Part shown: positions 17,521 to 64,000 of the stretch, in pieces
How positions within the stretch are numbered: position 1 is the first letter of the stretch
Layout: each line of letters opens with the position of its first letter
DNA from: Henricia sp. BOLD:AAB3569
Taxonomy: Eukaryota; Echinodermata; Asteroidea; Spinulosida; Echinasteridae
Assembly (NCBI GenBank): GCA_037783545.1
Contig: JBBELK010000401.1
Coordinates: 62,001 to 126,000, forward strand
Direction: 5' to 3'
Length of the DNA: 64,000 bases
The notes under the pieces: model-generated
What the model was told of the DNA's origin: nothing
Databases searched by the model: none
The model's input: the letters and a program-made list of their open reading frames with translations, nothing else
Program-made: the position numbers and the translations under genes

Positions 17521-17523
17521 TTA

Positions 17524-33970: not shown

Positions 33971-33978
33971 CTACATTC

Positions 33979-34798: not shown

Positions 34799-34799
34799 C

Positions 34800-35820: not shown

Positions 35821-35821
35821 T

Positions 35822-37420: not shown

Positions 37421-37774
37421 CCTAATAACAAGAAAACTCACCAGGGATGTGCAGACATTAGACTTACAAAAACCGCAGAAAAACACAGTTGTGAAGAGAT
37501 AAAAATACAGGTCTTTTCTTGATGCTGCTGGTCTACACACTGACCATGTGCTTGTGGTCACAGGGCCAGTGACCTCTACAGAAATAAACTATTTGGGGGA
37601 TGCACTACAAAAGACACGGGTCATACACAATCTAATGGGGCTTACACATGGGAAACTAAAAGGACATTAACAATATACTACAGGGGATGCACACCTATTA
37701 AAAACGGGACAGTTATTACACAATTTAAAGGAAATTATTTATAAACAGTTTTCACCCTTCTACAATTGCCCAAA

Positions 37775-38135
37775 ACCGGCCGAGTTACTTACAAGTTCAG
37801 CTTAAACTCTCCTGCCGGTCTACAAGCTGTTTTCCCACAGTCAGCCAATTCTGGATGGCTATATTGTGCCCGGGATACTCGCTAATTTTGAAGTCAAGGA
37901 ATTTCCCGACGAACTTCAAATTTTGCCTGTTAGAACCAAACTATATTCCACACTTGTCCTGCAAATTTGACAAACCTTCGCTCAAAACCGGCTGAGTTAC
38001 TTACGAGTTTAGTTAAAACTCTTCTGCCGGGCCTACAAGCGCACAATCGGCCACTTGTCGATGATACCCACTTATTTGGAAATCAAGGAATTTTCCAACG
38101 AACTTCAAATTTTGCATGCTCCAAACTGTGAACTG
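37775..38135. repeat. Diverged relative of the satellite core, ~189-bp dimer
   Basis: Two copies (gatactcgctaatttt at 37,874; gatacccacttatttgga at 38,063). The second is very close to the satellite over caaggaattttccaac and aacttcaaattttgcatgct then ccaaactgt. The non-satellite half is shared with 17,905-18,300. It lies 2.2 kb before the array and in the same orientation. Confidence 0.7.
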
Positions 38136-39833: not shown

Positions 39834-40180
39834 CTAACTGTGCGTTGTAATATCCGAGTCTGAAGACTTAGACGAAGAATATTCATCAGATTCGTGGCTA
39901 GTTTCAGCGGATTCTTCGGATGAACTCACATAATCCATGTCAGAGTCACTGTCTGCAAAAATTCTTCAAGTATCTCTGCATCGCGATCAGCCATGGTGCT
40001 CACATTTTGGCAAGAAGATTCAATTTTGTTGCAGGTTTTTCACGTGTCGTTTTCAAAAAAATCGTAATGGCGACCCCTATTGTATCATACACCAAACGAA
40101 AGCGGTGGCCAATGGGGCTCAAGCGTGGTACAGTGCACGGGCGACTAAAGTCGCCATTGGGGCTGAAAGGGCTAATCTGT
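39834..40180 (-). pseudogene. piggyBac transposase N-terminus and 5' end, relic
   Basis: On the minus strand the end reads ttagccctttcagcccc and then atggcgactttagtcgcc, close to the CCCTTT...GGCGA..TTTAGTCGCC ends of piggyBac elements, with TTAG instead of TTAA. An ATG in good context (caccATGG, A at 39,994) opens MADRDAEILEEFLQ; after one frame break an acidic-serine stretch (DSDSDMDYVSSSEESAETSH...) follows, as in PGBD/piggyBac N-termini, to a stop at 39,834. The DDD catalytic domain is absent. Lies 175 bp before the satellite. Confidence 0.6.
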
Positions 40181-43100
40181 CTTTCAGTGGCGAATGACAT
40201 CGGAATTGCTTAACACAATTGATTCCATAAGAATATTCCACACTGTAAACATTGTTTTTTACACAGAGTTTCATTAACCCGTTCCTGTTAATACACAAGA
40301 AAGGCATACTTGTAACCAATGCAAAATAATATGGACAGACTGTTAGTATATGCTCGGAATTAGGTCAAAGTGTGTCCCAAATGCCGGCAAATTTGGAAAT
40401 CAAGGAATTTTCCAACCAACTTCAAATTGTGCATGGTCCAAACTGTATTTATTCCGCACTTGTCATGCAAAATTGACAGATTTTCGCTGGGAAATGACGG
40501 AGAAATTTCAGAGTTTAGGGAAAACGGAGCTCGGCTGCGTGGTTATTCCCCTAACCGTGGCTGTTGGGACACCCTGCGCCGCGCTGGTGTACATTTGTAC
40601 GGCCGTTGACTCACCCCAGATTGTGACGGGAATTAGGTCAAAGTGTGTCCCAAATGCCGGCAAATTTGGAAATCAAGGAATTTTCCAACCAACTTCAAAT
40701 TTTGCATGCTTTAAACTGTATATATTCCGCACTTGTCATGCAAAATTGACAGATTTTCGCTGGGAAATGACGGAGAAATTTCAGAGTTTAGGGAAAACGG
40801 AGCTCGGCTGCGTGGTTATTCCCCTAACCGTGGCTGTTGGGACACCCTGCGCCGCGCTGGTGTACATTTGTACGGCCGTTGACTCACCCCAGATTGTGAC
40901 GGGAATTAGGTCAAAGTGTGTCCCAAATGCCGGCAAATTTGGAAATCAAGGAATTTTCCAACCAACTTCAAATTTTGCATGCTCCAAGCTGTATATATTC
41001 CGCACTTGTCATGCAAAATTGACAGATTTTCGCTGGGAAATGACGGAGAAATTTCAGAGTTTAGGGAAAACGGAGCTCGGCTGCGTGGTTATTCCCCTAA
41101 CCGTGGCTGTTGGGACACCCTGCGCCGCGCTGGTGTACATTTGTACGGCCGTTGACTCACCCCAGATTGTGACGGGAATTAGGTCAAAGTGTGTCCCAAA
41201 TGCCGGCACATTTGGAAATCAAGGAATTTTCCAACCAACTTCAAATTTTGCATGCTCCAAACTGTATATATTCCGCACTTGTCATGCAAAATTGACAGAT
41301 TTTCGCTGGGAAATGACGGAGAAATTTCGGAGTTTAGGGAAAACGGAGCTCGGCTGCGTGGTTATTCCCTAACCGTGGCTGTTGGGACACCCTGCGCATG
41401 CGCTGGTGTACATTTCTACGGCCGTTGACTCACCCCAGATTGTGACGGGAATTAGGTCAAAGTGTGTCCCAAATGCCGGCAAATTTGGAAATCTAGGAAT
41501 TTTCCAACCAACTTCAAATTGTGCATGCTCCAAACTGTATATATTCCGCACTTGTCATGCAAAATTGACAGATTTTCGCTGGGAAATGACGGAGAAATTT
41601 CAGAGTTTAGGGAAAACGGAGCTCGGCTGCGTGGTTATTCCCCTAACCGTGGCTGTTGGGACACCCTGCGCCGCGCTGGTGTACATTTGTACGGCCGTTG
41701 ACTCACCCCAGATTGTGACGGGAATTAGGTCAAAGTGTGTCCCAAATGCCGGCACATTTGGAAATCAAGGAATTTTCCAACCAACTTCAAATTTTGCATG
41801 CTCCAAACTGTATATATTCCGCACTTGTCATGCAAAATTGACAGATTTTCGCTGGGAAATGACGGAGAAATTTCGGAGTTTAGGGAAAACGGAGCTCGGC
41901 TGCGTGGTTATTCCCTAACCGTGGCTGTTGGGACACCCTGCGCATGCGCTGGTGTACATTTCTACGGCCGTTGACTCACCCCAGATTTTGACGGGAATTA
42001 GGTCAAAGTGTGTCCCAAATGCCGGCAAATTTGGAAATCTAGGAATTTTCCAACCAACTTCAAATTGTGCATGCTCCAAACTGTATATATTCCGCACTTG
42101 TCATGCAAAATTGACAGATTTTCGCTGGGAAATGACGGAGAAATTTCAGAGTTTAGGGAAAACGGAGCTCGGCTGCGTGGTTATTCCCCTAACCGTGGCT
42201 GTTGGGACACCCTGCGCCGCGCTGGTGTACATTTCTACGGCCGTTGACTCACCCCAAATTGTGACGGGAATTAGGTCAAAGTGTGTCCCAAATGCCGGCA
42301 AATTTGGAAATCAAGGAATTTTCCAACCAACTTCACATTTTGCATGCTCCAAACTGTATATATTCCGCACTTGTCATGCAAAATTGACAGATTTTCGCTG
42401 GGAAATGACGGAGAAATTTCAGAGTTTAAGTAAAACGGAGCTCGGCTGCGTGGTTATTCCCCTAACCGTGGCTGTTGGGACACCCTGCGCCGCGCTGGTG
42501 TACATTTGTACGGCCGTTGACTCACCCCAGATTGTGACGGGAATTAGGTCAAAGTGTGTCCCAAATGCCGGCAAATTTGGAAATCAAGGAATTTTCCAAC
42601 CAACTTCAAATTGTGCATGCTCCAAACTGTATATATTCCGCACTTGTCATGCAAAATTGACAGATTTTCGCTGGGAAATGACGGAGAAATTTCAGAGTTT
42701 AGGGAAAACGGAGCTCGGCTGCGTGGTTATTCCCCTAACCGTGGCTGTTGGGACACCCTGCACCGCGCTGGTCTACATTTCTACGGCCGTTGACTCACCC
42801 CAAATTGTGACGGGAATTAGGTCAAAGTGTGTCCCAAATGCCGGCAAATTTGGAAATCAAGGAATTTTCCAACCAACTTCAAATTTTGCATGCTCCAAGC
42901 TGTATATATTCCGCACTTGTCATGCAAAATTGACAGATTTTCGCTGGGAAATGACGGAGAAATTTCAGAGTTTAGGGAAAACGGAGCTCGGCTGCGTGGT
43001 TATTCCCCTAACCGTGGCTGTTGGGACACCCTGCGCCGCGCTGGTGTACATTTGTACGGCCGTTGACTCACCCCAGATTGTGACGGGAATTAGGTCAAAG

Positions 43101-46100
43101 TGTGTCCCAAATGCCGGCACATTTGGAAATCAAGGAATTTTCCAACCAACTTCAAATTTTGCATGCTCCAAACTGTATATATTCCGCACTTGTCATGCAA
43201 AATTGACAGATTTTCGCTGGGAAATGACGGAGAAATTTCGGAGTTTAGGGAAAACGGAGCTCGGCTGCGTGGTTATTCCCTAACCGTGGCTGTTGGGACA
43301 CCCTGCGCATGCGCTGGTGTACATTTCTACGGCCGTTGACTCACCCCAGATTGTGACGGGAATTAGGTCAAAGTGTGTCCCAAATGCCGGCAAATTTGGA
43401 AATCTAGGAATTTTCCAACCAACTTCAAATTGTGCATGCTCCAAACTGTATATATTCCGCACTTGTCATGCAAAATTGACAGATTTTCGCTGGGAAATGA
43501 CGGAGAAATTTCAGAGTTTAGGGAAAACGGAGCTCGGCTGCGTGGTTATTCCCCTAACCGTGGCTGTTGGGACACCCTGCGCCGCGCTGGTGTACATTTG
43601 TACGGCCGTTGACTCACCCCAGATTGTGACGGGAATTAGGTCAAAGTGTGTCCCAAATGCCGGCAAATTTGGAAATCAAGGAATTTTCCAACCAACTTCA
43701 AATTTTGCATGCTCCAAACTGTATATATTCCGCACTTGTCATGCAAAATTGACAGATTTTCGCTGGGAAATGACGGAGAAATTTCAGAGTTTACGGAAAA
43801 CGGAGCTCGGCTGCGTGGTTATTCCCCTAACCGTGGCTGTTGGGACACCCTGCGCCGCGCTGGTGTACATTTGTACGGCCGTTGACTCACCCCAGATTGT
43901 GACGGGAATTAGGTCAAAGTGTGTCCCAAATGCCGGCACATTTGGAAATCAAGGAATTTTCCAACCAACTTCAAATTTTGCATGCTCCAAACTGTATATA
44001 TTCCGCACTTGTCATGCAAAATTGACAGATTTTCGCTTGGAAATGACGGAGACATTTCAGAGTTTAGGGAAAACGGAGCTCGGATGCGTGGTTATTCCCC
44101 TAACCGTGGCTGTTGGGACACCCTGCGCCGCGCTGGTGTACATTTGTACGGCCGTTGACTCACCCCAGATTGTGACGGGAATTAGGTCAAAGTGTGTCCC
44201 AAATGCCGGCAAATTTGGAAATCAAGGAATTTTCCAACCAACTTCAAATTTTGCATGCTCCAAACTGTATATATTCCGCACTTGTCATGCAAAATTGACA
44301 GATTTTCGCTGGGAAATGACGGAGAAATTTCAGAGTTTAGGGAAAACGGAGCTCGGCTGCGTGGTTATTCCCCTAACCGTGGCTGTTGGGACACCCTGCG
44401 CCGCGCTGGTGTACATTTGTACGGCCGTTGACTCACCCCAGATTGTGACGGGAATTAGGTCAAAGTGTGTCCCAAATGCCGGCACATTTGGAAATCAAGG
44501 AATTTTCCAACCAACTTCAAATTTTGCATGCTCCAAACTGTATATATTCCGCACTTGTCATGCAAAATTGACAGATTTTCGCTGGGAAATGACGGAGAAA
44601 TTTCGGAGTTTAAGGAAAACGGAGCTCGGCTGCGTGGTTATTCCCCTAACCGTGGCTGTTAGGACACCCTGCGCATGCGCTGGTGTACATTTCTACGGCC
44701 GTTGACTCACCCCAGATTGTGACGGGAATTAGGTCAAAGTGTGTCCCAAATGCCGGCACATTTGGAAATCAAGGAATTTTCCAACCAACTTCAAATTTTG
44801 CATGCTCCAAACTGTATATATTCCGCACTTGTCATGCAAAATTGACAGATTTTCGCTGGGAAATGACGGAGAAATTTCGGAGTTTAGGGAAAACGGAGCT
44901 CGGCTGCGTGGTTATTCCCCTAACCGTGGCTGTTGGGACACCCTGCGCATGCGCTGGTGTACATTTCTACGGCCGTTGACTCACCCCAGATTGTGACGGG
45001 AATTAGGTCAAAGTGTGTCCCAAATGCCGGCAAATTTGGAAATCAAGGAATTTTCCAACCAACTTCAAATTTTCCATGCTTCAAACTGTATATATTCCGC
45101 ACTTGTCATGCAAAATTGACAGATTTTCGCTGGGAAATGACGGAGAAATTTCAGAGTTTAGGGAAAACGGAGCTCGGCTGCGTGGTTATTCCCCTAACCG
45201 TGGCTGTTGGGACACCCTGCGCCGCGCTGGTGTACATTTGTACGGCCGTTGACTCACCCCAGATTGTGACGGGAATTAGGTCAAAGTGTGTCCCAAATGC
45301 CGGCACATTTGGAAATCAAGGAATTTTCCAACCAACTTCAAATTTTGCATGCTCCAAACTGTATATATTCCGCACTTGTCATGCAAAATTGACAGATTTT
45401 CGCTGGGAAATGACGGAGAAATTTCGGAGTTTAGGGAAAACGGAGCTCAGCTGCGTGGTTATTCCCCTAACCGTGGCTGTTGGGACACCCTGCGCATGCG
45501 CTGGTGTACATTTCTACGGCCGTTGACTCACCCCAGATTGTGACGGGAATTAGGTCAAAGTGTGTCCCAAATGCCGGCAAATTTGGAAATCAAGGAATTT
45601 TCCAACCAACTTCAAATTGTGCATGCTCCAAACTGTATATATTCCGCACTTGTCATGCAAAATTGACAGATTTTCGCTGGGAAATGACGGAGAAATTTCA
45701 GAGTTTAGGGAAAACGGAGCTCGGCTGCGTGGTTATTCCCCTAACCGTGGCTGTTGGGACACCCTGCGCCGCGCTGGTCTACATTTCTACGGCCGTTGAC
45801 TCACCCCAAATTGTGACGGGAATTAGGTCAAAGTGTGTCCCAAATGCCGGCAAATTTGGAAATCAAGGAATTTTCCAACCAACTTCAAATTTTGCATGCG
45901 CCAAACTGTATATATTCCGCACTTGTCATGCAAAATTGATAGATTTTCGCTGGGAAATGACGGATAAATTTCAGAGTTTAGGGAAAACGGAGCTCGGCTG
46001 CGTGGCTATTCCCCTAACCGTGGCTGTTGGGACACCCTGCGCCGCGCTGGTGTACATTTGTACGGCCGTTGACTCACCCCAGATTGTGACGGGAATTAGG

Positions 46101-48838
46101 TCAAAGTGTGTCCCAAATGCCGGCACATTTGGAAATCAAGGAATTTTCCAACCAACTTCAAATTTTGCATGCTCCAAACTGTATATATTCCGCACTTGTC
46201 ATGCAAAATTGACAGATTTTCGCTGGGAAATGACGGAGAAATTTCGGAGTTTAGGGAAAACGGAGCTCGGCTGCGTGGTTATTCCCCTAACCGTGGCTGT
46301 TGGGACACCCTGCGCATGCGCTGGTGTACATTTCTACGGCCGTTGACTCACCCCAGATTGTGACGGGAATTAGGTCAAAGTGTGTCCCAAATGCCGGCAA
46401 ATTTGGAAATCAAGGAATTTTCCAACCAACTTCAAATTTTCCATGCTTCAAACTGTATATATTCCGCACTTGTCATGCAAAATTGACAGATTTTCGCTGG
46501 GAAATGACGGAGAAATTTCGGAGTTTAGGGAAAACGGAGCTCGGCTGCGTGGTTATTCCCCTAACCGTGGCTGTTGGGACACCCTGCGCATGCGCTGGTG
46601 TACATTTCTACGGCCGTTGACTCACCCCAGATTGTGACGGGAATTAGGTCAAAGTGTGTCCCAAATGCCGGCAAATTTGGAAATCAAGGAATTTTCCAAC
46701 CAACTTCAAATTTTGCATGCTCCAAACTGTATATATTCCGCACTTGTCATGCAAAATTGACAGATTTTCGCAGGGAAATGACGGAGAAATTTCAGAGTTT
46801 AGGGAAAACGGAGCTCGGCTGCGTGGTTATTCCCCTAACCGTGGCTGTTGGGACACCCTGCGCCGCGCTGGTGTACATTTGTACGGCCGTTGACTCACCC
46901 CAGATTGTGACGGGAATTAGGTCAAAGTGTGTCCCAAATGCCGGCACATTTGGAAATCAAGGAATTTTCCAACCAACTTCAAATTTTGCATGCTCCAAAC
47001 TGTATATATTCCGCACTTGTCATGCAAAATTGACAGATTTTCGCTGGGAAATGACGGAGAAATTTCGGAGTTTAGGGAAAACGGAGCTCAGCTGCGTGGT
47101 TATTCCCCTAACCGTGGCTGTTGGGACACCCTGCGCATGCGCTGGTGTACATTTCTACGGCCGTTGACTCACCCCAGATTGTGACGGGAATTAGGTCAAA
47201 GTGTGTCCCAAATGCCGGCAAATTTGGAAATCAAGGAATTTTCCAACCAACTTCAAATTGTGCATGCTCCAAACTGTATATATTCCGCACTTGTCATGCA
47301 AAATTGACAGATTTTCGCTGGGAAATGACGGAGAAATTTCAGAGTTTAGGGAAAACGGAGCTCGGCTGCGTGGTTATTCCCCTAACCGTGGCTGTTGGGA
47401 CACCCTGCGCCGCGCTGGTCTACATTTCTACGGCCGTTGACTCACCCCAAATTGTGACGGGAATTAGGTCAAAGTGTGTCCCAAATGCCGGCAAATTTGG
47501 AAATCAAGGAATTTTCCAACCAACTTCAAATTTTGCATGCTCCAAGCTGTATATATTCCGCACTTGTCATGCAAAATTGACAGATTTTCGCTGGGAAATG
47601 ACGGAGAAATTTCAGAGTTTAGGGAAAACGGAGCTCGGCTGCGTGGTTATTCCCCTAACCGTGGCTGTTGGGACACCCTGCGCCGCGCTGGTGTACATTT
47701 GTACGGCCGTTGACTCACCCCAGATTGTGACGGGAATTAGGTCAAAGTGTGTCCCAAATGCCGGCACATTTGGAAATCAAGGAATTTTCCAACCAACTTC
47801 AAATTTTGCATGCTCCAAACTGTATATATTCCGCACTTGTCATGCAAAATTGACAGATTTTCGCTGGGAAATGACGGAGAAATTTCGGAGTTTAGGGAAA
47901 ACGGAGCTCGGCTGCGTGGTTATTCCCTAACCGTGGCTGTTGGGACACCCTGCGCATGCGCTGGTGTACATTTCTACGGCCGTTGACTCACCCCAGATTG
48001 TGACGGGAATTAGGTCAAAGTGTGTCCCAAATGCCGGCAAATTTGGAAATCTAGGAATTTTCCAACCAACTTCAAATTGTGCATGCTCCAAACTGTATAT
48101 ATTCCGCACTTGTCATGCAAAATTGACAGATTTTCGCTGGGAAATGACGGAGAAATTTCAGAGTTTAGGGAAAACGGAGCTCGGCTGCGTGGTTATTCCC
48201 CTAACCGTGGCTGTTGGGACACCCTGCGCTGCGCTGGTGTACATTTCTACGGCCGTTGACTCACCCCAAATTGTGACGGGAATTAGGTCAAAGTGTGTCC
48301 CAAATGCCGGCAAATTTGGAAATCAAGGAATTTTCCAACCAACTTCACATTTTGCATGCTCCAAACTGTATATATTCCGCACTTGTCATGCAAAATTGAC
48401 AGATTTTCGCTGGGAAATGACGGAGAAATTTCAGAGTTTAAGTAAAACGGAGCTCGGCTGCGTGGTTATTCCCCTAACCGTGGCTGTTGGGACACCCTGC
48501 GCCGCGCTGGTGTACATTTGTACGGCCGTTGACTCACCCCAGATTGTGACGGGAATTAGGTCAAAGTGTGTCCCAAATTCCGGCAAATTTGGAAATCAAG
48601 GAATTTTCCAACCAACTTCAAATTTTGCACGCTCCAAACTGTATATATTCCGCACTTGTCATGCAAAATTGACAGATTTTCGCTGGGAAATGACGGAGAA
48701 ATTTCAGAGTTTAGGGAAAACGGAGTTCGGCTGCGTGGTTATTCTCCTAACCGTGGATGTTGGGACACCCTGGGCCGCGCTGGTGTACATTTGTACGGCC
48801 GTTGACTCACCCCAGATTGTGACGGGAATTAGGTCAAA

Positions 48839-51800
48839 GTGTGTCCCAAATGCCGGCAAATTTGGAAATCAAGGAATTTTCCAACCAACTTCAAATTTTG
48901 CATGCTCCAAACTGTATATATTCCTCACTTGTCATGCAAAATTGACAGATTTTCGCTGGGAAATGACGGAGAAATTTCAGAGTTTAGGGAAAACGGAGCT
49001 CGGCTGCGTGGTTATTCCCCTAACCGTGGCTGTTGGGACACCCTGCGCATGCGCCGCGCTGGTGTACATTTGTACGGCCGTTGACTCACCCCAGATTGTG
49101 ACGGGAATTAGGTCAAAGTGTGTCCCAAATGCCGGCACATTTGGAAATCAAGGAATTTTCCAACCAACTTCAAATGTTGCATGCTCCAAACTGTATATAT
49201 TCCGCACTTGTCATGCAAAATTGACAGATTTTCGCTGGGAAATGACGGAGAAATTTCGGAGTTTAGGGAAAACGGAGCTCAGCTGCGTGGTTATTCCCCT
49301 AACCGTGGCTGTTGGGACACCCTGCGCATGCGCTGGTGTACATTTCTACGGCCGTTGACTCACCCCAGATTGTGACGGGAATTAGGTCAAAGTGTGTCCC
49401 AAATGCCGGCAAATTTGGAAATCAAGGAATTTTCCAACCAACTTCAAATTGTGCATGCTCCAAACTGTATATATTCCGCACTTGTCATGCAAAATTGACA
49501 GATTTTCGCTGGGAAATGACGGAGAAATTTCAGAGTTTAGGGAAAACGGAGCTCGGCTGCGTGGTTATTCCCTTAACCGTGGCTGTTGGGACACCCTGCG
49601 CCGCGCTGGTCTACATTTCTACGGCCGTTGACTCACCCCAAATTGTGACGGGAATTAGGTCAAAGTGTGTCCCAAATGCCGGCAAATTTGGAAATCAAGG
49701 AATTTAACAACCAACTTCAAATTTTGCATGCTCCAAGCTGTATATATTCCGCACTTGTCATGCAAAATTGACAGATTTTCGCTGGGAAATGACGGAGAAA
49801 TTTCAGAGTTTAGGGAAAACGGAGCTCGGCTGCGTGGTTATTCCCCTAACCGTGGCTGTTGGGACACCCTGCGCCGCGCTGGTGTACATTTGTACGGCCG
49901 TTGACTCACCCCAGATTGTGACGGGAATTAGGTCAAAGTGTGTCCCAAATGCCGGCAAATTTGGAAATCAAGGAATTTTCCAACCAACTTCAAATTTTGC
50001 ATGCTCCAAACTGTATATATTCCGCACTTGTCATGCAAAATTGACAGATTTTCGCTGGGAAATGACGGAGAAATTTCAGAGTTTAGGGAAAACGGAGCTC
50101 GGCTGCGTGGTTATTCCCTAACCGTGGCTGTTGGGACACCCTGCGCATGCGCTGGTGTACATTTCTACGGCCGTTGACTCACCCCAGATTGTGACGGGAA
50201 TTAGGTCAAAGTGTGTCCCAAATGCCGGCAAATTTGGAAATCTAGGAATTTTCCAACCAACTTCAAATTGTGCATGCTCCAAACTGTATATATTCCGCAC
50301 TTGTCATGCAAAATTGACAGATTTTCGCTGGGAAATGACGGAGAAATTTCAGAGTTTAGGGAAAACGGAGCTCGGCTGCGTGGTTATTCCCCTAACCGTG
50401 GCTGTTGGGACACCCTGCGCCGCGCTGGTGTACATTTCTACGGCCGTTGACTCACCCCAAATTGTGACGGGAATTAGGTCAAAGTGTGTCCCAAATGCCG
50501 GCAAATTTGGAAATCAAGGAATTTTCCAACCAACTTCACATTTTGCATGCTCCAAACTGTATATATTCCGCACTTGTCATGCAAAATTGACAGATTTTCG
50601 CTGGGAAATGACGGAGAAATTTCAGAGTTTAAGTAAAACGGAGCTCGGCTGCGTGGTTATTCCCCTAACCGTGGCTGTTGGGACACCCTGCGCCGCGCTG
50701 GTGTACATTTGTACGGCCGTTGACTCACCCCAGATTGTGACGGGAATTAGGTCAAAGTGTGTCCCAAATTCCGGCAAATTTGGAAATCAAGGAATTTTCC
50801 AACCAACTTCAAATTTTGCACGCTCCAAACTGTATATATTCCGCACTTGTCATGCAAAATTGACAGATTTTCGCTGGGAAATGACGGAGAAATTTCAGAG
50901 TTTAGGGAAAACGGAGTTCGGCTGCGTGGTTATTCTCCTAACCGTGGATGTTGGGACACCCTGGGCCGCGCTGGTGTACATTTGTACGGCCGTTGACTCA
51001 CCCCAGATTGTGACGGGAATTAGGTCAAAGTGTGTCCCAAATGCCGGCAAATTTGGAAATCAAGGAATTTTCCAACCAACTTCAAATTTTGCACGCTCCA
51101 AACTGTATATATTCCGCACTTGTCATGCAAAATTGACAGATTTTCGCTGGGAAATGACGGAGAAATTTCAGAGTTTAGGGAAAACGGAGTTCGGCTGCGT
51201 GGTTATTCCCCTAACCGTGGCTGTTGGGACACCCTGCGCCGCGCTGGTGTACATTTCTACGGCCGTTGACTCACCCCAAATTGTGACGGGAATTAGGTCA
51301 AAGTGTGTCCCAAATGCCGGCAAATTTGGAAATCAAGGAATTTTCCAACCAACTTCAAATTTTGCATGCTCCAAACTGTATATATTCCGCACTTGTCATG
51401 CAAAATTGACAGATTTTCGCTGGGAAATGACGGAGAAATTTCAGAGTTTAGGGAAAACGGAGCTCGGCTGCGTGGTTATTCCCCTAACCGTGGCTGTTGG
51501 GACACCCTGCGCCGCGCTGGTGTACATTTGTACGGCCGTTGACTCACCCCAGATTGTGACGGGAATTAGGTCAAAGTGTGTCCCAAATGCCGTCAAATTT
51601 GGAAATCAAGGAATTTCCCAACCAACTTCAAATTTTGCATGCTCCAAACTGTATATATTCCTCACTTGTCATGCAAAATTGACAGATTTTCGCTGGGAAA
51701 TGACGGAGAAATTTCAGAGTTTAGGGAAAACGGAGCTCGGCTGCGTGGTTATTCCCCTAACCGTGGCTGTTGGGACACCCTGCGCATGCGCCGCGCTGGT

Positions 51801-54800
51801 GTACATTTGTACGGCCGTTGACTCACCCCAGATTGTGACGGGAATTAGGTCAAAGTGTGTCCCAAATGCCGGCACATTTGGAAATCAAGGAATTTTCCAA
51901 CCAACTTCAAATGTTGCATGCTCCAAACTGTATATATTCCGCACTTGTCATGCAAAATTGACAGATTTTCGCTGGGAAATGACGGAGAAATTTCGGAGTT
52001 TAGGGAAAACGGAGCTCGGCTGCGTGGTTATTCCCCTAACCGTGGCTGTTGGGACACCCTGCGCATGCGCTGGTGTACATTTCTACGGCCGTTGACTCAC
52101 CCCAGATTGTGACGGGAATTAGGTCAAAGTGTGTCCCAAATGCCGGCAAATTTGGAAATCAAGGAATTTTCCAACCAACTTCAAATTTTGCATGCTCCTA
52201 ACTGTATATATTCCGCACTTGTCATGCAAGATTGACAGATTTTCGCTGGGAAATGACGGAGAAATTTCAGAGTTTAGGGAAAACGGAGCTCGGCTGCGTG
52301 GTTATTCCCCTAACCGTGGCTGTTGGGACACCCTGCGCCGCGCTGGTGTACATTTGTACGGCCGTTGACTCACCCCAGATTGTGACGGGAATTAGGTCAA
52401 AGTGTGTCCCAAATGCCGGCACATTTGGAAATCAAGGAATTTTCCAACCAACTTCAAATGTTGCATGCTCCAAACTGTATATATTCCGCACTTGTCATGC
52501 AAAATTGACAGATTTTCGCTGTGAAATGACGGAGAAATTTCGGAGTTTAGGGAAAACGGAGCTCGGCTGCGTGGTTATTCCCCTAACCGTGGCTGTTGGG
52601 ACACCCTGCGCATGCGCTGGTGTACATTTCTACGGCCGTTGACTCACCCCAGATTGTGACGGGAATTAGGTCAAAGTGTGTCCCAAATGCCGGCAAATTT
52701 GGAAATCAAGGAATTTTCCAACCAACTTCAAATTTTGCATGCTCCAAACTGTATATATTCCGCACTTGTCATGCAAAATTGACAGATTTTCGCTGTGAAA
52801 TGACGGAGAAATTTCGGAGTTTAGGGAAAACGGAGCTCGGCTGCGTGGTTATTCCCCTAACCGTGGCTGTTGGGACACCCTGCGCCGCGCTGGTGTACAT
52901 TTGTACGGCCGTTGACTCACCCCAGATTGTGACGGGAATTAGGTCAAAGTGTGTCCCAAATGCCGGCAAATTTGGAAATCAAGGAATTTTCCAACCAACT
53001 TCAAAATTTGCATGCTCCAAACTGTATATATTCCGCACTTGTCATGCAAAATTGACAGATTTTCGCTAGGAAATGACGGAGAAATTTCAGAGTTTAGGGA
53101 AAACGGAGCTCGGCTGCGTGGTTATTCCCCTAACCGTGTCTGTTGGGACACCCTGCGCCGCGCTGGTGTACATTTGTACGGCCGTTGACTCACCCCAGAT
53201 TGTGACGGGAATTAGGTCAAAGTGTGTCCCAAATGCCGGCAAATTTGGAAATCAAGGAATTTTCCAACCAACTTCAAATTTTGCATGTTCCAAACTGTAT
53301 ATATTCCGCACTTGTCATGCAAAATTGACAGATTTTCGCTGGGAAATGACGGAGAAATTTCAGAGTTTAGGGAAAACGGAGCTCGGCTGCGTGGTTATTC
53401 CCCTAACCGTGGCTGTTGGGACACCCTGCGCATGCGCTGGTGTACATTTCTACGGCCGTTGACTCACCCCAGATTGTGACGGGAATTAGGTCAAAGTGTG
53501 TCCCAAATGCCGGCAAATTTGGAAATCAAGGAATTTTCCAACCAACTTCAAATTTTGCATGCTCCAAACTGTATATATTCCGCACTTGTCATGCAAGATT
53601 GACAGATTTTCGCTGGGAAATGACGGAGAAATTTCAGAGTTTAGGGAAAACGGAGCTCGGCTGCGTGGTTATTCCCCTAACCGTGGCTGTTGGGACACCC
53701 TGCGCCGCGCTGGTGTACATTTGTACAGCCGTTGACTCTCCCCAGATTGTGACGGGAATTAGGTCAAAGTGTGTCCCAAATGCCGGAAAATTTGGAAATC
53801 AAGGAATTTTCCAACCAACTTCAAAATTGGCATGCTCCAAACTGTATATATTCCGCACTTGTCATGCAAAATTGACAGATTTTCGCTAGGAAATGACGGA
53901 GAAATTTCAGAGTTTAGGGAAAACGGAGCTCGGCTGCGTGGTTATTCCCCTAACCGTGTCTGTTGGGACACCCTGCGCCGCGCTGGTGTACATTTGTACG
54001 GCCGTTGACTCACCCCAGATTGTGACGGGAATTAGGTCAAAGTGTGTCCCAAATGCCGGCAAATTTGGAAATCAAGGAATTTTCCAACCAACTTCAAATT
54101 GTGCATGCTCCAAACTGTATATATTCCGCACTTGTCATGCAAAATTGACAGATTTTCGCTGGGAAATGACGGAGAAATTTCAGAGTTTAGGGAAAACGGA
54201 GCTCGGCTGCGTGGTTATTCCCCTAACCGTGGCTGTTGGGACACCCTGCGCCGCGCTGGTGTACATTTGTACGGCCGTTGACTCACCCCAGATTGTGACG
54301 GGAATTAGGTCAAAGTGTGTCCCAAATGCCGGCAAATTTGGAAATCAAGGAATTTTCCAACCAACTTCAAATTTTGCATGCTCCAAACTGTATATATTCC
54401 TCACTTGTCATGCAAAATTGACAGATTTTCGCTGGGAAATGACGGAGAAATTTCAGAGTTTATGGAAAACGGAGCTCGGCTGCGTGGTTATTCCCCTAAC
54501 CGTGGCTGTTGGGACACCCTGCGCATGCGCCGCGCTGGTGTACATTTGTACGGCCGTTGACTCACCCCAGATTGTGACGGGAATTAGGTCAAAGTGTGTC
54601 CCAAATGCCGGCACATTTGGAAATCAAGGAATTTTCCAACCAACTTCAAATGTTGCATGCTCCAAACTGTATATATTCCGCACTTGTCATGCAAAATTGA
54701 CAGATTTTCGCTGGGAAATTACGGAGAAATTTCGGAGTTTAGGGAAAACGGAGCTCGGCTGCGTGGTTATTCCCCTAACCGTGGCTGTTGGGACACCCTG

Positions 54801-55414
54801 CGCATGCGCTGGTGTACATTTCTACGGCCGTTGACTCACCCCAGATTGTGACGGGAATTAGGTCAAAGTGTGTCCCAAATGCCGGCAAATTTGGAAATCA
54901 AGGAATTTTCCAACCAACTTCAAATTTTGCATGCTCCAAACTGTATATATTCCGCACTTGTCATGCAAGATTGACAGATTTTCGCTGGGAAATGACGGAG
55001 AAATTTCAGAGTTTAGGGAAAACGGAGCTCGGCTGCGTGGTTATTCCCCTAACCGTGGCTGTTGGGACACCCTGCGCCGCGCTGGTGTACATTTGTACGG
55101 CCGTTGACTCACCCCAGATTGTGACGGGAATTAGGTCAAAGTGTGTCCCAAATGCCGGCACATTTGGAAATCAAGGAATTCTCCAACCAACTTCAAATGT
55201 TGCATGCTCCAAACTGTATATATTCCGCACTTGTCATGCAAAATTGACAGATTTTCGCTGTGAAATGACGGAGAAATTTCGGAGTTTAGGGAAAACGGAG
55301 CTCGGCTGCGTGGTTATTCCCCTAACCGTGGCTGTTGGGACACCCTGCGCATGCGCTGGTGTACATTTCTACGGCCGTTGACTCACCCCAGATTGTGACG
55401 GGAATTAGGTCAAA
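48839..55414 (+). repeat. Irregular higher-order repeat zone, ~10-unit (2.74 kb) spacing
   Basis: Units starting at 48,839, 51,576 and 54,315 share the rare ttcctcac change and the 279-bp form; each is followed by a caaatgttgcatg unit. The block 51,576-52,675 matches 54,315-55,414 unit by unit at offset 2,739 (marker changes ttcctcac, atgttgc, caagattgac, gctgtgaaa). Units between these blocks differ, so the order is mosaic. Confidence 0.7.
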
Positions 55415-56512
55415 GTGTGTCCCAAATGCCGGCAAATTTGGAAATCAAGGAATTTTCCAACCAACTTCAAATTTTGCATGCTCCAAACTGTATATATTCC
55501 GCACTTGTCATGCAAGATTGACAGATTTTCGCTGGGAAATGACGGAGAAATTTCAGAGTTTAGGGAAAACGGAGCTCGGCTGCGTGGTTATTCCCCTAAC
55601 CGTGGCTGTTGGGACACCCTGCGCCGCGCTGGTGTACATTTGTACGGCCGTTGACTCACCCCAGATTGTGACGGAAATTAGGTCAAAGTGTGTCCCAAAT
55701 GCCGGCAAATTTGGAAATCAAGGAATTTTCCAACCAACTTTAAATTTTGCATGCTCCAAACTGTATATATTCCGCACTTGTCATGCAAAATTGACAGATT
55801 TTCGCTGGGAAATGACGGAGAAATTTCAGAGTTTAGGGAAAACGGAGCTCGGCTGCGTGGTTATTCCCCTAACCGTGGCTGTTGGGACACCCTGCGCCGC
55901 GCTGGTGTACATTTGTACGGCCGTTGACTCACCCCAGATTGTGACGGGAATTAGGTCAAAGTGTGTCCCAAATGCCGGCAAATTTGGAAATCAAGGAATT
56001 TTCCAACCAACTTCAAATTTTGCATGCTCCAAACTGTATATATTCCGCACTTGTCATGCAAAATTGACAGATTTTCGCTGGGAAATGACGGAGAAATTTC
56101 AGAGTTTAGGGAAAACGGAGCTCGGCTGCGTGGTTATTCCCCTAACCGTGGCTGTTGGGACACCCCGCGCCGCGCTGGTGTACATTTGTACGGCCGTTGA
56201 CTCACCCCAGATTGTGACGGGAATTAGGTCAAAGTGTGTCCCAAATGCCGGCAAATTTGGAAATCAAGGAATTTTCCAACCAACTTCAAATTTTGCATGC
56301 TCCAAACTGTATATATTCCGCACTTGTCATGCAAAATTGACAGATTTTCGCTGGGAAATGACGGAGAAATTTCAGAGTTTAGGGAAAACGGAGCTCGGCT
56401 GCGTGGTTATTCCCCTAACCGTGGCTGTTGGGACACCCTGCGCATGCGCCGCGCTGGTGTACATTTGTACGGCCGTTGACTCACCCCAGATTGTGACGGG
56501 AATTAGGTCAAA

Positions 56513-57616
56513 GTGTGTCCCAAATGCCGGCAAATTTGGAAATCAAGGAATTTTCCAACCAACTTCAAATTTTGCATGCTCCAAACTGTATATATTCCGC
56601 ACTTGTCATGCAAAATTGACAGATTTTCGCTGGGAAATTACGGAGAAATTTCAGAGTTTAGGGAAAACGGAGATCGGCTGCGTGGTTATTCTCCTAACCG
56701 TGGCTGTTGGGACACCCTGCGCATGCGCCGCGCTGGTGTACATTTGTACGGCCGTTGACTCACCCCAGATTGTGACGGGAATTAGGTCAAAGTGTGTTCC
56801 AAATGCCGGCAAATTTGGAAATCAAGGAATTTTCCAACCAACTTCAAATTTTGCATGCTCCAAACTGCATATATTCCGCACTTGTCATGCAAAATTGACA
56901 GATTTTCGCTGGGAAATGACGGAGAAATTTCAGAGTTTAGGGAAAACGGAGCTCGGCTGCGTGGTTATTCCCCTAACCGTGGCTGTTGGGACACCCTGCG
57001 CCGCGCTGGTGTACATTTGTACGGCCGTTGACTCACCCCAGATTGTGACGGGAATTAGGTCAAAGTGTGTCCCAAATGCCGGCAAATTTGGAAATCAAGG
57101 AATTTTCCAACCAACTTCAAATTTTGCATGCTCCAAACTGTATATATTCCGCACTTGTCATGCAAAATTGACAGATTTTCGCTGGGAAATGACGGAGAAA
57201 TTTCAGAGTTTAGGGAAAACGGAGATCGGCTGCGTGGTTATTCTCCTAACCGTGGCTGTTGGGACACCCTGCGCATGCGCCGCGCTGGTGTACATTTGTA
57301 CGGCCGTTGACTCACCCCAGATTGTGACGGGAATTAGGTCAAAGTGTGTTCCAAATGCCGGCAAATTTGGAAATCAAGGAATTTTCCAACCAACTTCAAA
57401 TTTTGCATGCTCCAAACTGCATATATTCCGCACTTGTCATGCAAAATTGACAGATTTTCGCTGGGAAATGACGGAGAAATTTCAGAGTTTAGGGAAAACG
57501 GAGCTCGGCTGCGTGGTTATTCCCCTAACCGTGGCTGTTGGGACACCCTGCGCCGCGCTGGTGTACATTTGTACGGCCGTTGACTCACCCCAGATTGTGA
57601 CGGGAATTAGGTCAAA
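56513..57616 (+). repeat. Two-unit duplication inside the satellite
   Basis: The pair at 56,513-57,064 (gagatcggc, attctccta; then gtgttccaa, aactgcata) is repeated at 57,065-57,616, offset 552 bp, with one further base difference seen (aaattacgg against aaatgacgg). Confidence 0.8.
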
Positions 57617-58714
57617 GTGTGTCCCAAATGCCGGCAAATTTGGAAATCAAGGAATTTTCCAACCAACTTCAAATTTTGCATGCTCCAAACTGTATATATT
57701 CCGCACTTGTCATGCAAAATTGACAGATTTTCGCTCGGAAATGACGGAGAAATTTCAGAGTTTAGGGAAAACGGAGCTCGGCTGCGTGGTTATTCCCCTA
57801 ACCGTGGCTGTTGGGACACCCTGCGCCGCGCTGGTGTACATTTGTACGGCCGTTGACTCACCCCAGATTGTGACGGGAATTAGGTCAAAGTGTGTCCCAA
57901 ATGCCGGCAAATTTGGAAATCAAGGAATTTTCCAACCAACTTCAAATTTTGCATGCTCCAAACTGTATATATTCCGCACTTGTCATGCAAAATTGACAGA
58001 TTTTCGCTGGGAAAAGACGGAGAAATTTCAGAGTTTAGGGAAAACGGAGCTCGGCTGCGTGGTTATTCCCCTAACCGTGGCTGTTGGGACACCCCGCGCC
58101 GCGCTGGTGTACATTTGTACGGCCGTTGACTCACCCCAGATTGTGACGGGAATTAGGTCAAAGTGTGTCCCAAATGCCGGCAAATTTGGAAATCAAGGAA
58201 TTTTCCAACCAACTTTAAATTTTGCATGCTCCAAACTGTATATATTCCGCACTTGTCATGCAAAATTGACAGATTTTCGCTGGGAAATGACGGAGAAATT
58301 TCAGAGTTTAGGGAAAAAGGAGCTCGGCTGCGTGGTTATTCCCCTAACCGTGGCTGTTGCGACACCCTGCGCATGCGCCGCGCTGGTGTACATTTGTACG
58401 GCCGTTGACTCACCCCAGATTGTGACGGGAATTAGGTCAAAGTGTGTCCCAAATGCCGGCAAATTTGGAAATCAAGGAATTTTCCAACCAACTTCAAATT
58501 TTGCATGCTCCAAATTGTATATATTCCGCACTTGTCATGCAAAATTGACAGATTTTCGCTGGGAAATGAAGGAGAAATTTCAGAGTTTAGGGAAAACGGA
58601 GCTCGGCTGCGTGGTTATTCCCCTAACCGTGGCTGTTGGGACACCCTGCGCCGCGCTGGTGTACATTTGTACGGCCGTTGACTCACCCCAGATTGTGACG
58701 GGAATTAGGTCAAA

Positions 58715-61700
58715 GTGTGTCCCAAATGCCGGCAAATTTGGAAATCAAGGAATTTTCCAACCAACTTCAAATTTTGCATGCTCCAAACTGTATATATTCC
58801 GCACTTGTCATGCAAAATTGACAGATTTTCGCTGGGAAATGACGGAGAAATTTCAGAGTTTAGGGAAAACGGAGCTCGGCTGCGTGGTTATTCCCCTAAC
58901 TGTGGCTGTTGGGACACCCTGCGCCGCGCTGGTGTACATTTGTACGGCCGTTGACTCACCCCAGATTGTGACGGGAATTAGGTCAAAGTGTGTCCCAAAT
59001 GCCGGCAAATTTGGAAATCAAGGAATTTTCCAACCAACTTTAAATTTTGCATGCTCCAAACTGTATATATTCCGCACTTGTCATGCAAAATTAACAGATT
59101 TTCGCTGGGAAATGACGGAGAAATTTCAGAGTTTAGGGAAAACGGAGCTCGGCTGCGTGGTTATTCCCCTAACCGTGGCTGTTGGCGACACCCTGCGCAT
59201 GCGCCGCGCTGGTGTACATTTGTACGGCCGTTGACTCACCCCAGATTGTGACGGGAATTAGGTCAAAGTGTGTCCCCAAATGCCGGCAAATTTGGAAATC
59301 AAGGAATTTTCCAACCAACTTCAAATTTTGCATGCTCCAAACTGTATATATTCCGCACTTGTCATGCAAAATTGACAGATTTTCGCTGGGAAATGACGGA
59401 GAAATTTCAGAGTTTAGGGAAAACGGAGCTCGGCTGCGTGGTTATTCCCTAACCGTGGCTGTTGGATACCCTGCGCATGCGCCGCGCTGGTGTACATTTG
59501 TACGGCCGTTGACTCACCCCAGATTGTGACGGGAATTAGGTCAAAGTGTGTCCCAAATGCCGGCAAATTTGGAAATCAAGGAATTTTCCAACCAACTTCA
59601 AATTGTGCATGCTCCAAACTGTATATATTCCGCACTTGTCATGCAAAATTGACAGATTTTCGCTGGGAAATGACGGAGAAATTTCAGAGTTTAGGGAAAA
59701 CGGAGCTCGGCTGCATGGTTATTCCCCTAACCGTGGCTGTTGGGATACCCTGCGCATGCGCCGCGCTGGTGTACATTTGTACGGCCGTTGACTCACCCCA
59801 GATTGTGACGGGAATTAGGTCAAAGTGTGTCCCAAATGCCGGCAAATTTGGAAATCAAGGAATTTTCCAACCAACTTCAAATTGTGCATGCTCCAAACTG
59901 TATATATTCCGCACTTGTCATGCAAAATTGACAGATTTTCGCTGGGAAATGACGGAGAAATTTCAGAGTTTAGGGAAAACGGAGCTCGGCTGCGTGGTTA
60001 TTCCCCTAACCGTGGCTGTTGGGACACCCTGCGCCGCGCTGGTGTACATTTGTACGGCCGTTGACTCACCCCAGATTGTGACGGGAATTAGGTCAAAGTG
60101 TGTCCCAAATGCCGGCAAATTTGGAAATCAAGGAATTTTCCAACCAACTTCAAATTTTGCATGCTCCAAACTGTATATATTCCGCACTTGTCATGCAAAA
60201 TTAACAGATTTTCGCTGGGAAATGACGGAGAAATTTCAGAGTTTAGGGAAAACGGAGCTCGGCTGCGTGGTTATTCCCCTAACCGTGGCTGTTGCGACAC
60301 CCTGCGCATGCGCCGCGCTGGTGTACATTTGTACGGCCGTTGACTCACCCCAGATTGTGACGGGAATTAGGTCAAAGTGTGTCCCAAATGCCGGCAAATT
60401 TGGAAATCAAGGAATTTTCCAACCAACTTCAAATTTTGCATGCTCCAAACTGTATATATTCCGCACTTGTCATGCAAAATTGACAGATTTTCGCTGGGAA
60501 ATGACGGAGAAATTTCAGAGTTTAGGGAAAACGGAGCTCGGCTGCGTGGTTATTCCCCTAACCGTGGCTGTTGGGATACCCTGCGCATGCGCCGCGCTGG
60601 TGTACATTTGTACGGCCGTTGACTCACCCCAGATTGTGACGGGAATTAGGTCAAAGTGTGTCCCAAATGCCGGCAAATTTGGAAATCAAGGAATTTTCCA
60701 ACCAACTTCAAATTTTGCATGCTCCAAACTGTATATATTCCGCACTTGTCATGCAAAATTGACAGATTTTCGCTGGGAAATGACGGAGAAATTTCAGAGT
60801 TTAGGGAAAACGGAGCTCGGCTGCGTGGTTATTCCCCTAACTGTGGCTGTTGGGACACCCTGCGCCGCGCTGGTGTACATTTGTACGGCCGTTGACTCAC
60901 CCCAGATTGTGACGGGAATTAGGTCAAAGTGTGTCCCAAATGCCGGCAAATTTGGAAATCAAGGAATTTTCCAACCAACTTTAAATTTTGCATGCTCCAA
61001 ACTGTATATATTCCGCACTTGTCATGCAAAATTAACAGATTTTCGCTGGGAAATGACGGAGAAATTTCAGAGTTTAGGGAAAACGGAGCTCGGCTGCGTG
61101 GTTATTCCCCTAACCGTGGCTGTTGCGACACCCTGCGCATGCGCCGCGCTGGTGTACATTTGTACGGCCGTTGACTCACCCCAGATTGTGACGGGAATTA
61201 GGTCAAAGTGTGTCCCAAATGCCGGCAAATTTGGAAATCAAGGAATTTTCCAACCAACTTCAAATTTTGCATGCTCCAAACTGTATATATTCCGCACTTG
61301 TCATGCAAAATTGACAGATTTTCGCTGGGAAATGACGGAGAAATTTCAGAGTTTAGGGAAAACGGAGCTCGGCTGCGTGGTTATTCCCCTAACCGTGGCT
61401 GTTGGGATACCCTGCGCATGCGCCGCGCTGGTGTACATTTGTACGGCCGTTGACTCACCCCAGATTGTGACGGGAATTAGGTCAAAGTGTGTCCCAAATG
61501 CCGGCAAATTTGGAAATCAAGGAATTTTCCAACCAACTTCAAATTGTGCATGCTCCAAACTGTATATATTCCGCACTTGTCATGCAAAATTGACAGATTT
61601 TCGCTGGGAAATGACGGAGAAATTTCAGAGTTTAGGGAAAACGGAGCTCGGCTGCATGGTTATTCCCCTAACCGTGGCTGTTGGGATACCCTGCGCATGC

Positions 61701-62038
61701 GCCGCGCTGGTGTACATTTGTACGGCCGTTGACTCACCCCAGATTGTGACGGGAATTAGGTCAAAGTGTGTCCCAAATGCCGGCAAATTTGGAAATCAAG
61801 GAATTTTCCAACCAACTTCAAATTGTGCATGCTCCAAACTGTATATATTCCGCACTTGTCATGCAAAATTGACAGATTTTCGCTGGGAAATGACGGAGAA
61901 ATTTCAGAGTTTAGGGAAAACGGAGCTCGGCTGCGTGGTTATTCCCCTAACCGTGGCTGTTGGGACACCCTGCGCCGCGCTGGTGTACATTTGTACGGCC
62001 GTTGACTCACCCCAGATTGTGACGGGAATTAGGTCAAA
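58715..62038 (+). repeat. Seven-unit (1,941-bp) duplication inside the satellite
   Basis: Units at 58,715, 58,988, ~59,267, 59,546 and 59,825 match 60,656, 60,929, 61,208, 61,487 and 61,766 at a constant 1,941-bp offset, sharing aactgtggc, aactttaaat, aaattaacag, gggatacc and gctgcatgg changes. Single-base indels in the ~59,180-59,470 pair of units distinguish the left copy. Confidence 0.8.
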
Positions 62039-63410
62039 GTGTGTCCCAAATGCCGGCAAATTTGGAAATCAAGGAATTTTCCAACCAACTTCAAATTTTG
62101 CATGCTCCAAACTGTATATATTCCGCACTTGTCATGCAAAATTGACAGATTTTCGCTGGGAAATGACGGAGAAATTTCAGAGTTTAGGGAAAACGGAGCT
62201 CGGCTGCGTGGTTATTCCCCTTACCGTGGCTGTTGGGACACCCTGCGCCGCGCTGGTGTACATTTGTACGGCCGTTGACTCACCCCAGATTGTGACGGGA
62301 ATTAGGTCAAAGTGTGTCCCAAATGCCGGCAAATTTGGAAATCAAGGAATTTTCCAACCAACTTCACATTTGGCATGCTCCAAACTGTATATATTCTGCA
62401 CTTGTCATGCAAAATTGACAGATTTTCGCTGGGAAATGACGGAGAAATTTCAGAGTTTAGGGAAAACGGAGCTCGGCTGCATGGTTATTCCCCTAACCGT
62501 GGCTGTTGGGACACCCTGCGCCGCGCTGGTGTACATTTGTACGGCCGTTGACTCACCCCAGATTGTGACGGGAATTAGGTCAAAGTGTGTCCCAAATGCC
62601 GGCAAATTTGGAAATCAAGGAATTTTCCAACCAACTTCAAATGTTGCATGCTCCAAACTGTATATATTCCGCACTTGTCATGCAAAATTGACAGATTTTC
62701 GCTGGGAAATGACGGAGAAATTTCAGAGTTTAGGGAAAACGGAGCTCGGCTGCGTGGTTATTCCCCTAACCGTGGCTGTTGGGACACCCTGCGCATGCGC
62801 CGCGCTGGTGTACATTTGTACGGCCGTTGACTCACCCCAGATTGTGACGGGAATTAGGTCAAAGTGTGTCCCAAATGCCGGCAAATTTGGAAATCAAGGA
62901 ATTTTCCAACCAACTTCAAATTTTGCATGCTCCAAACTGTATATACTCCGCACTTGTCATGCAAAATTGACAGATTTTTGCTGGGAAATGACGGAGAAAT
63001 TTCAGAGTTTAGGGAAAACGGAGCTCGGCTGCGTGGTTATTCCCCTAACCGTGGCTGTTGGGACACCCTGCGCCGCGCTGGTGTACATTTGTACGGCCGT
63101 TGACTCATCCCAGATTGTGACGGGAATTAGGTCAAAGTGTGTCCCAAAATGCCGGCAAATTTGGAAATCAAGGAATTTTCCAACCAACTTCAAATTTTGC
63201 ATGCTCCAAACTGTATATATTCCGCACTTGTCATGCAAAATTGACAGATTTTCGCTGGGAAATGACGGAGAAATTTCAGAGTTTAGGGAAAACGGAGCTC
63301 GGCTGCGTGGTTATTCCCCTTACCGTGGCTGTTGGGACACCCTGCGCCGCGCTGGTGTACATTTGTACGGCCGTTGACTCACCCCAGATTGTGACGGGAA
63401 TTAGGTCAAA

Positions 63411-63757
63411 GTGTGTCCCAAATGCCGGCAAATTTGGAAATCAAGGAATTTTCCAACCAACTTCAAATTTTGCATGCTCCAAACTGTATATATTCCGCAC
63501 TTGTCATGCAAAATTGACAGATTTTCGCCTTTAAATTTTGCATGCTCCAAACTGTATATATTCCGCACTTGTCATGCAAAATTGACAGATTTTCGCTGGG
63601 AAATGACGGAGAAATTTCAGAGTTTAGGGAAAACTGAGCTCGGCTGCGTGGTTATTCCCCTAACCGTGGCTGTTGGGACACCCTGCGCATGCGCCGCGCT
63701 GGTGTACATTTGTACGGCCGTTGACTCACCCCAGATTGTGATGGGAATTAGGTCAAA
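63411..63757 (+). repeat. Chimeric 347-bp satellite monomer
   Basis: At 63,528 the unit jumps from gacagattttcgc back to ctttaaattttgcatgctcc, so 68 bp are present twice. The unit also carries the 6-bp gcgcatgcgccgcgc form. Confidence 0.85.
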
Positions 63758-64000
63758 GTGTTTCCCAAATGGCGGCAAATTTGGAAATCAAGGAATTTTC
63801 CAACCAACTTCAAATTTTGCATGCTCCAAACTGTATATATTCCGCACTTGTCATGCAAAATTGACAGATTTTCGCTGGGAAATGACGGAGAAATTTCAGA
63901 GTTTAGGGAAAACGGAGCTCGGCTGCGTGGTTATTCCCCTAACCGTGGCTGTTGAGACACCCTGCGCATGCGCCGCGCTGGTGTACATTTGTACGGCCGT

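What the first reader, a model, noticed from the sequence alone, without database searches (positions are those of the whole stretch)
40355..64000. A long 273-bp satellite with highly uniform units and an abrupt edge
86 monomers fill the last 23.6 kb and continue beyond the window. Units differ by only a few bases, implying recent amplification or strong homogenisation. The first unit is as well kept as internal ones and enters mid-unit, unlike the decayed borders common for satellites. Each unit alternates an AT-rich and a GC-rich half. I do not recognise the sequence as a named satellite. A centromeric, subtelomeric or other heterochromatic role is possible but not shown.
Basis: seen in the sequence. 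Interest (0 to 1): 0.72.

Follow-up and report, generated by a model that had tools for sequence, protein, structure and literature searches.

The report
Starfish satellite punctuated by gene-fragment islands
The repeat is a major starfish satellite, and its sharp edge is one of dozens of identical joints where copies of one chromosome segment, most of them cut inside a gene, sit within the arrays, much as in the chromosome caps of great apes.

Summary
The array is real (86 unit starts in the window) and runs to the contig end. It is a major satellite: 157,700 anchor matches genome-wide, about 45 Mb or 6% of the 741-Mb assembly. Mitochondrial gene order says starfish. The "abrupt edge" is not a one-off: the same joint occurs 38 times on 36 contigs. 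It is the right edge of a 48.8-kb island of ordinary DNA with satellite on both sides. The left edge is equally fixed: 31 copies, cut inside the last intron of a queuosine-salvage gene (PF10343). The uncut site exists three times, each on a contig with the same right joint; in the one read further (C288) the preceding exon is there. So a segment beside the array was severed from its gene, joined to satellite and multiplied: 34 copies of its first kilobase are 98-100% identical to this one, 31 of them with the left joint. The right joint is found beside three different single-copy flanks. Between the two islands compared, satellite order is scrambled although 4.1 kb of island is 99% identical. 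Closest known: great-ape subterminal caps. Chromosomal position and function are not shown.

The parts
40356..64000 (+). 273-bp satellite array (86 unit starts), continuing to the contig end
   Evidence: TRF, monomer split, BLAST of consensus
40333..40370 (+). right joint island|satellite; the 38-base string GGACAGACTGTTAGTATATGCTC|GGAATTAGGTCAAAG occurs 38 times in the genome
   Evidence: pattern search, 23 forward + 15 reverse, 35 exact, reversed-pattern control 0; 20 of the 38 fetched and aligned
1..40355 (+). right 40.4 kb of the 48.8-kb island (C401:53551-102355); its left end, with the gene exon, lies in locus L012
   Evidence: copy of window 36282-40356 at 99% on C533
39400..40355 (+). 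last 956 bp of the island; at least 40 copies: 36 full-length rows at 96-100%, one at 96% over 760 bp, three at 91-95%
   Evidence: only 40 of 2401 first-look candidates were scored
18023..18299 (+). degenerate satellite pieces inside the island (74-76%)
37881..38129 (+). degenerate satellite pieces inside the island (75%; 38074-38129 at 98%)
48825..49103 (+). first of the 14 279-bp units in the window (6-bp insertion in the GC-rich part)
63397..63743 (+). 347-bp unit with a 68-bp internal duplication

Best explanation
A major starfish satellite (about 45 Mb) whose arrays are punctuated by copies of one chromosomal segment, acting as segmental-duplication spacers. Shown: at three loci the last intron of a queuosine-salvage gene is uncut and the same contig carries one fixed joint with the array; in 31 copies the segment is cut in that intron and joined to satellite, and for 30 of them both fixed joints lie on one contig and strand; three more copies have the start of the segment without either string. 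Inferred: one non-homologous break-and-join severed the segment from its gene and left it with satellite on both sides. Exchange between satellite stretches (unequal sister exchange, and ectopic exchange between non-homologous chromosomes that carry the same array in the same polarity) then multiplied the island and keeps the monomers alike. The long islands persist as markers while monomer order around them turns over. No function for the host is needed.
For: Right joint 38 times on 36 contigs, left joint 31 times on 29 contigs, 30 pairs on the same contig and strand, 28-66 kb apart, median 45 kb (reversed-pattern controls 0). The uncut intron string occurs exactly 3 times, on C288, C874 and C1231, which all carry the right joint too. 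In C288 the preceding exon lies upstream; the two joined exons hit PF10343 at 2.7e-28 and PDB 7ugk at 1.1e-22. The first kilobase of 34 copies is 98-100% identical to this one, the three uncut loci 95-96% over its first 679-698 bp. Fourteen of 20 fetched joints have no substitution against the window in 240 bp. Monomers in most stretches differ about as much within as between contigs (C401R 7.04 vs 6.98). One 433-bp insert occurs 16 times right of the island and once in the stretch read left of it, all at 98.8% or more. A block of 18 monomers is duplicated on C401; the shuffled control has no run of three. Two contigs hold two islands each in one orientation. C288, C333 and C475 lead into three different flanks, with the right joint pointing away from the flank in each.
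Against: Read depth could not be checked; mis-joins in satellite could misplace islands. Equal polarity in 3 of 3 has a 1-in-4 chance. Five of 17 stretches are tighter within than between by more than one column, so some local sets exist. In the last 956 bp the uncut loci are as close to this copy (97-98%) as most cut ones while the left ends differ by 4-5%, so one simple duplication history does not fit the whole segment; exchange or conversion inside it must be assumed. Only one pair (C401, C533) was compared for monomer order beside the joint.
Confidence: 0.7

Rival explanations
1. The islands are copies of a large mobile element that inserts into the satellite.
For: Fixed ends and many copies, with satellite at both joints.
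Against: The right joint is shared with the contigs that hold the uncut gene, so it looks like an old border and not an element end. The left end lies in a gene intron. Satellite phase jumps across the island (leaves near unit position 184, resumes at 1), which a simple insertion would not give. Six-frame Pfam scans (E up to 0.001) of window 1-39990 and L012:1551-10000 found only the gene's last exon.
Confidence: 0.05
2. All islands lie in one large block on a single chromosome (for example a sex or B chromosome) and spread only by unequal exchange within that block.
For: Two contigs hold two islands each, 100 and 173 kb apart left edge to left edge; local block duplications.
Against: C288, C333 and C475 lead into three different flanks; four of five probes matched only themselves. 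Most stretches show no contig-specific monomer sets, though 5 of 17 are tighter within.
Confidence: 0.2
3. Copy number is inflated by haplotype duplication or mis-assembly; the real genome has few islands.
For: C401 and C884 share a 14-bp deletion and C884 is the closest copy to C401 at both ends, as an allele might be. Read depth not available.
Against: Joint-to-joint lengths range 28-66 kb, with differences between copies at both ends; four flank probes are single-copy, so the assembly is not simply doubled there.
Confidence: 0.1
4. The unit is a protein-coding repeat: one frame is open through tandem 273-bp units.
For: A 341-codon open frame begins at 40347; 273 is divisible by three.
Against: About 23% of simulated units have at least one open frame in six; differences fall 289/465/263 over the three codon positions in 474 of 486 273-bp monomers (12 with 25 or more differences dropped); 24% of monomers have lengths not divisible by three. 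Pfam gave nine weak whole-protein sums and no passing stretch; one of them (PF25065) is 0.7 bits over its cut-off.
Confidence: 0.02

Closest known systems
African great-ape subterminal heterochromatic caps: pCht satellite with segmental-duplication spacers (PMC12154684; abstract and results sections 5-7 read)
   Same: Satellite arrays interrupted by one family of tens-of-kb spacers derived from ordinary gene-bearing DNA (apes 32-34 kb on average; here 28-66 kb, median 45); the spacer is a piece of a gene region; about 5-8% of the genome; exchange between non-homologous chromosomes proposed as the cause.
   Different: Here the source segment directly borders the array and one spacer end is the border itself; 273-bp and not 32-bp unit; 34 assembled copies and not 400-700 per haplotype; monomers show little CpG decay whereas pCht is highly methylated; subterminal position not shown; unrelated phylum.
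Ordinary major (peri)centromeric satellites of animals (general knowledge)
   Same: Megabases of homogenised tandem units, local block duplications, inserted elements carried along.
   Different: Punctuation by one duplicated island with two fixed joints.
Mammalian acrocentric short arms and pericentromeric duplicons (general knowledge; only the listings of PMC12767296 and PMC12724521 were seen)
   Same: Ectopic exchange between non-homologous arms, gene fragments next to satellite.
   Different: There many kinds of duplicons and rDNA; here one duplicon family.

Membership tests
Satellite DNA (major) | long head-to-tail arrays of one unit | tested here: met
Satellite DNA (major) | megabase abundance on many contigs | tested here: met
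   157,700 anchor matches, control 0; about 45.2 Mb after calibration on 147,429 bp of array
Satellite array with segmental-duplication spacers (ape-cap type) | one spacer family from low-copy gene-bearing DNA interrupts the arrays in many copies | tested here: met
Satellite array with segmental-duplication spacers (ape-cap type) | spread over non-homologous chromosomes | tested here: inconclusive
   three different single-copy flanks; no chromosome assignment
Satellite array with segmental-duplication spacers (ape-cap type) | subterminal position | tested here: inconclusive
   telomere-bearing ends of C131 and C70 show no satellite at the points read between 10 and 25 kb; other ends not examined
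Satellite array with segmental-duplication spacers (ape-cap type) | hypomethylated spacers in methylated satellite | not testable with these tools
   only indirect: in the satellite CpG C>T is 0.0075 vs 0.0051 at other C, G>A 0.0035 vs 0.0036; CpG o/e 0.92 in the array, 0.84 in the island
Centromeric satellite | CENP-A occupancy | not testable with these tools
   no chromatin data
Centromeric satellite | CENP-B box (optional) | tested here: not met
   best site 6 mismatches of 17; about half of 2000 shuffles do as well
Asteroidea (source organism) | echinoderm mitochondrial code; nad1, trnL, trnG, trnY on the strand opposite cox1 | tested here: met
   (ND1 recognised by eye from part of the gene); order compared with Table 4 of PMC6262923 (passages)

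The most novel reading that the evidence does not exclude
The island is an active hotspot of exchange: its long unique sequence pairs non-homologous chromosomes, so that it both spreads itself and homogenises a 45-Mb satellite genome-wide. That would be an independent invention, in an echinoderm, of the spacer-punctuated heterochromatin known from great apes, and would make such spacers a general engine of satellite turnover.
Probability: 0.22. Interest if true: 0.82.

Novelty: new variant of a known kind. Interest (0 to 1): 0.6.

Why it matters
Satellites are hard to study because their copies have no landmarks. Here the arrays carry tens-of-kilobase markers of known origin, with uncut source loci still present, so the order of events and the routes of exchange can be read. 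It also lets one test whether the spacer architecture of great-ape caps is peculiar to them or a general outcome of satellite evolution.

Tried and rejected
Coding repeat: rejected. CENP-B box: no better than chance. RNA genes: no Rfam match at gathering score and no tRNA in the window. Higher-order repeat: no dominant period; weak ones in single stretches (C1659 lags 6 and 12, C893 lag 18). A 10.5-bp AA/TT/TA period in the unit (26 turns per 273 bp) has p = 0.0125 in a band chosen after seeing the peak; not used. Collinear satellite beside islands: not found for C401 against C533; across the 16 stretches compared, runs of four or five near-identical monomers were seen in three pairs, shuffled controls 0. 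Mobile element: no element genes in the island at E up to 0.001. Species: not determined beyond Asteroidea. One 18.2-kb island query could not be scored.
Full report
Observation. The array is as described: 273-bp units from 40356, 86 unit starts in the window, a clean left edge, and continuation to the contig end at C401:183980. The window is C401:62001-126000 of a 740.7-Mb assembly in 2104 contigs. Unit lengths are 273 (55), 279 (14), 274 (13), 280, 278 and 347. The 28-base anchor with up to two mismatches has 74,234 forward and 83,466 reverse matches; the reversed pattern has none. On 147,429 bp of fetched array (15 loci) there is one such match per 286.8 bp, so the total is about 45.2 Mb, 6.1% of the assembly. 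This is a major satellite.

Organism. COX1 is open under the echinoderm code (table 9). Part of ND1 (recognised by eye), tRNA-Leu(taa), tRNA-Gly and tRNA-Tyr lie in that order on the opposite strand before it, the arrangement given for starfish in PMC6262923 (passages seen). The species was not determined.

The edge is a repeated joint. The 38 bases across the edge occur 38 times on 36 contigs (35 exact, two with one mismatch, one with two; control 0). Twenty of the 38 were fetched, 401 bases each. All 20 align with the window across the joint; over 240 bp 14 have no substitution, five have one to three, and one (L053, second site on C704) has nine, its sequence being different beyond roughly 180 bp from the joint. 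The last 956 bp of the island have at least 40 copies: 36 full-length rows at 96-100%, one at 96% over 760 bp, and three at 91-95% on contigs where the joint was not found (40 of 2401 candidates scored).

The rest of the window is an island. On C401 the satellite is also present left of the island, in the same orientation, ending at C401:53550 (read at 1-10000 and 52001-53550). The left joint occurs 31 times on 29 contigs (25 exact, 6 with one mismatch; control 0). Thirty left-right pairs lie on the same contig and strand, 28.0-66.1 kb apart, median 45.0 kb; eight right joints lack a left partner and one left joint lacks a right partner. Two contigs hold two islands each. The spans between their islands are about 57 kb (C416) and 138 kb (C704); these spans were not read.

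Origin of the island. Thirty bases inside the left edge begins an exon that matches the end of the queuosine salvage protein profile (PF10343, positions 236-285; E 4.5e-9). On C288 the sequence does not switch to satellite at that point but runs on through an intron to the preceding exon (profile 190-234; E 9.7e-13); the two together give 2.7e-28 and match PDB 7ugk at 1.1e-22. The uncut intron string occurs exactly three times, on C288, C874 and C1231, and these three contigs carry the right joint. So the right joint looks like an old border between ordinary DNA and array, and the left joint is a cut through the gene. At the cut, by eye, satellite and intron share about one base and no long homology. 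In the first kilobase 34 copies (33 rows covering at least 942 bp, plus C703 in two pieces) are 98-100% identical to this one; the three uncut loci are 95-96% over the first 679-698 bp (40 of 4207 candidates scored, so counts are floors; one further row, C797, is a 90% partial match). Of the 34, 31 have the left-joint string; C407 begins 58 bp further in, and C1327 and C267 have the island start but not that string within three mismatches.

How it spreads. Of 831 monomers cut from 17 fetched stretches (13 contigs), 793 of 255-290 bp were aligned. For the array right of the island they differ as much within as between stretches, 7.04 and 6.98 columns of 280. Five of 17 stretches are tighter within by more than one column (C1305b, C1785, C1157, C986 and the five-monomer C401L2), and two are looser within (C1212 by 1.5 columns, C1305a by 0.6). 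Local block duplications are seen: a run of 18 near-identical monomers at lag 26 on C401, with no run of three after shuffling; in C1305b, C991, C1157 and C986 shuffles also gave runs of 4-5. A 433-bp insert inside a monomer, which looks like a 5'-truncated LINE end (recalled, not searched), occurs 16 times right of the island and once in the stretch read left of it, all 98.8-100% alike. Right of the joint, C401 and C533 are not collinear (mean 6.27 differences on the diagonal, 6.07-7.23 off it) although 4.1 kb of island before the joint is 99% identical. So, in this one pair, monomer order turned over faster than the islands diverged.

Where it lies. Probes of 300 bp show that C288, C333 and C475 pass from array and island into non-satellite DNA. 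Of five flank probes sent back to the genome four matched only themselves; the fifth (C333:110001) is a dispersed repeat that filled most of the 40 scored places. The three flanks are therefore different, and in each the right joint points away from the flank. They are not alike in detail: C288 is an uncut locus, with decayed satellite (84%) in one probe 58 kb before the joint; C333 has a cut island, and array at 86 and 90 kb between island and flank; C475 has island sequence at 50 kb but neither the left joint nor the uncut site. The telomere search listed only its first 100 places, on C70 and C131; in both, the points read at 10-25 kb are not satellite. Whether the arrays are pericentromeric, subterminal elsewhere or on short arms is open.

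Comparison. The nearest described case is the subterminal heterochromatin of African great apes: pCht satellite interrupted by duplicated spacers averaging 32-34 kb from gene-bearing DNA, 5.0-8.5% of the genome, with exchange between non-homologous chromosomes (PMC12154684; abstract and results sections 5-7 read). This looks as if it works like that; membership in the strict sense (subterminal position, methylation contrast) was not shown. Six searches of open papers on starfish, sea stars or echinoderms with satellite or tandem-repeat terms showed no description of this satellite in their listings; a word search of two starfish genome papers finds no use of the word satellite. Subscription papers and repeat databases were not available.

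Weak points. No read depth, no chromosome map, a capped number of scored copies, and only short stretches of other islands read. Collinearity along whole islands was not shown; it was seen for the two ends and for 4.1 kb on C533.

Noticed in passing
L011, L016, L017 (C401:150517-173780) and L019:8502-8934: A 433-bp insert inside a monomer, LINE-end-like with a short target duplication (by eye), present 17 times in the stretches of this contig that were read.
   Followed up: partly
L023:7911-8475 (C533:83911-84475): A 565-bp insert in the array with terminal inverted repeats and TAA on both sides, like a Harbinger-type MITE (recalled).
   Followed up: no
L025:1-1797 (C1212:78001-79797): A second, different array edge on a contig that also has the fixed joint; monomers there are more diverged (mean 10.1 differences).
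   Followed up: no
L083 (C475:76001-77200): Ty3-like integrase domains (rve, H2C2) where the island's left end would be expected on C475.
   Followed up: partly
G000:C955: A 48.6-kb contig with COX1 three times, 16,221 bp apart: three mitochondrial genome lengths in tandem, probably an assembly concatemer.
   Followed up: no
window 3096-3544, 6895-6943, 9956-10395, 20276-21017, 27603-28367: Other short tandem repeats and a C-rich run inside the island.
   Followed up: no
L067 (C288:990001-990300): Satellite at 84% identity on the far side of the uncut gene, an older relic of the same family.
   Followed up: partly
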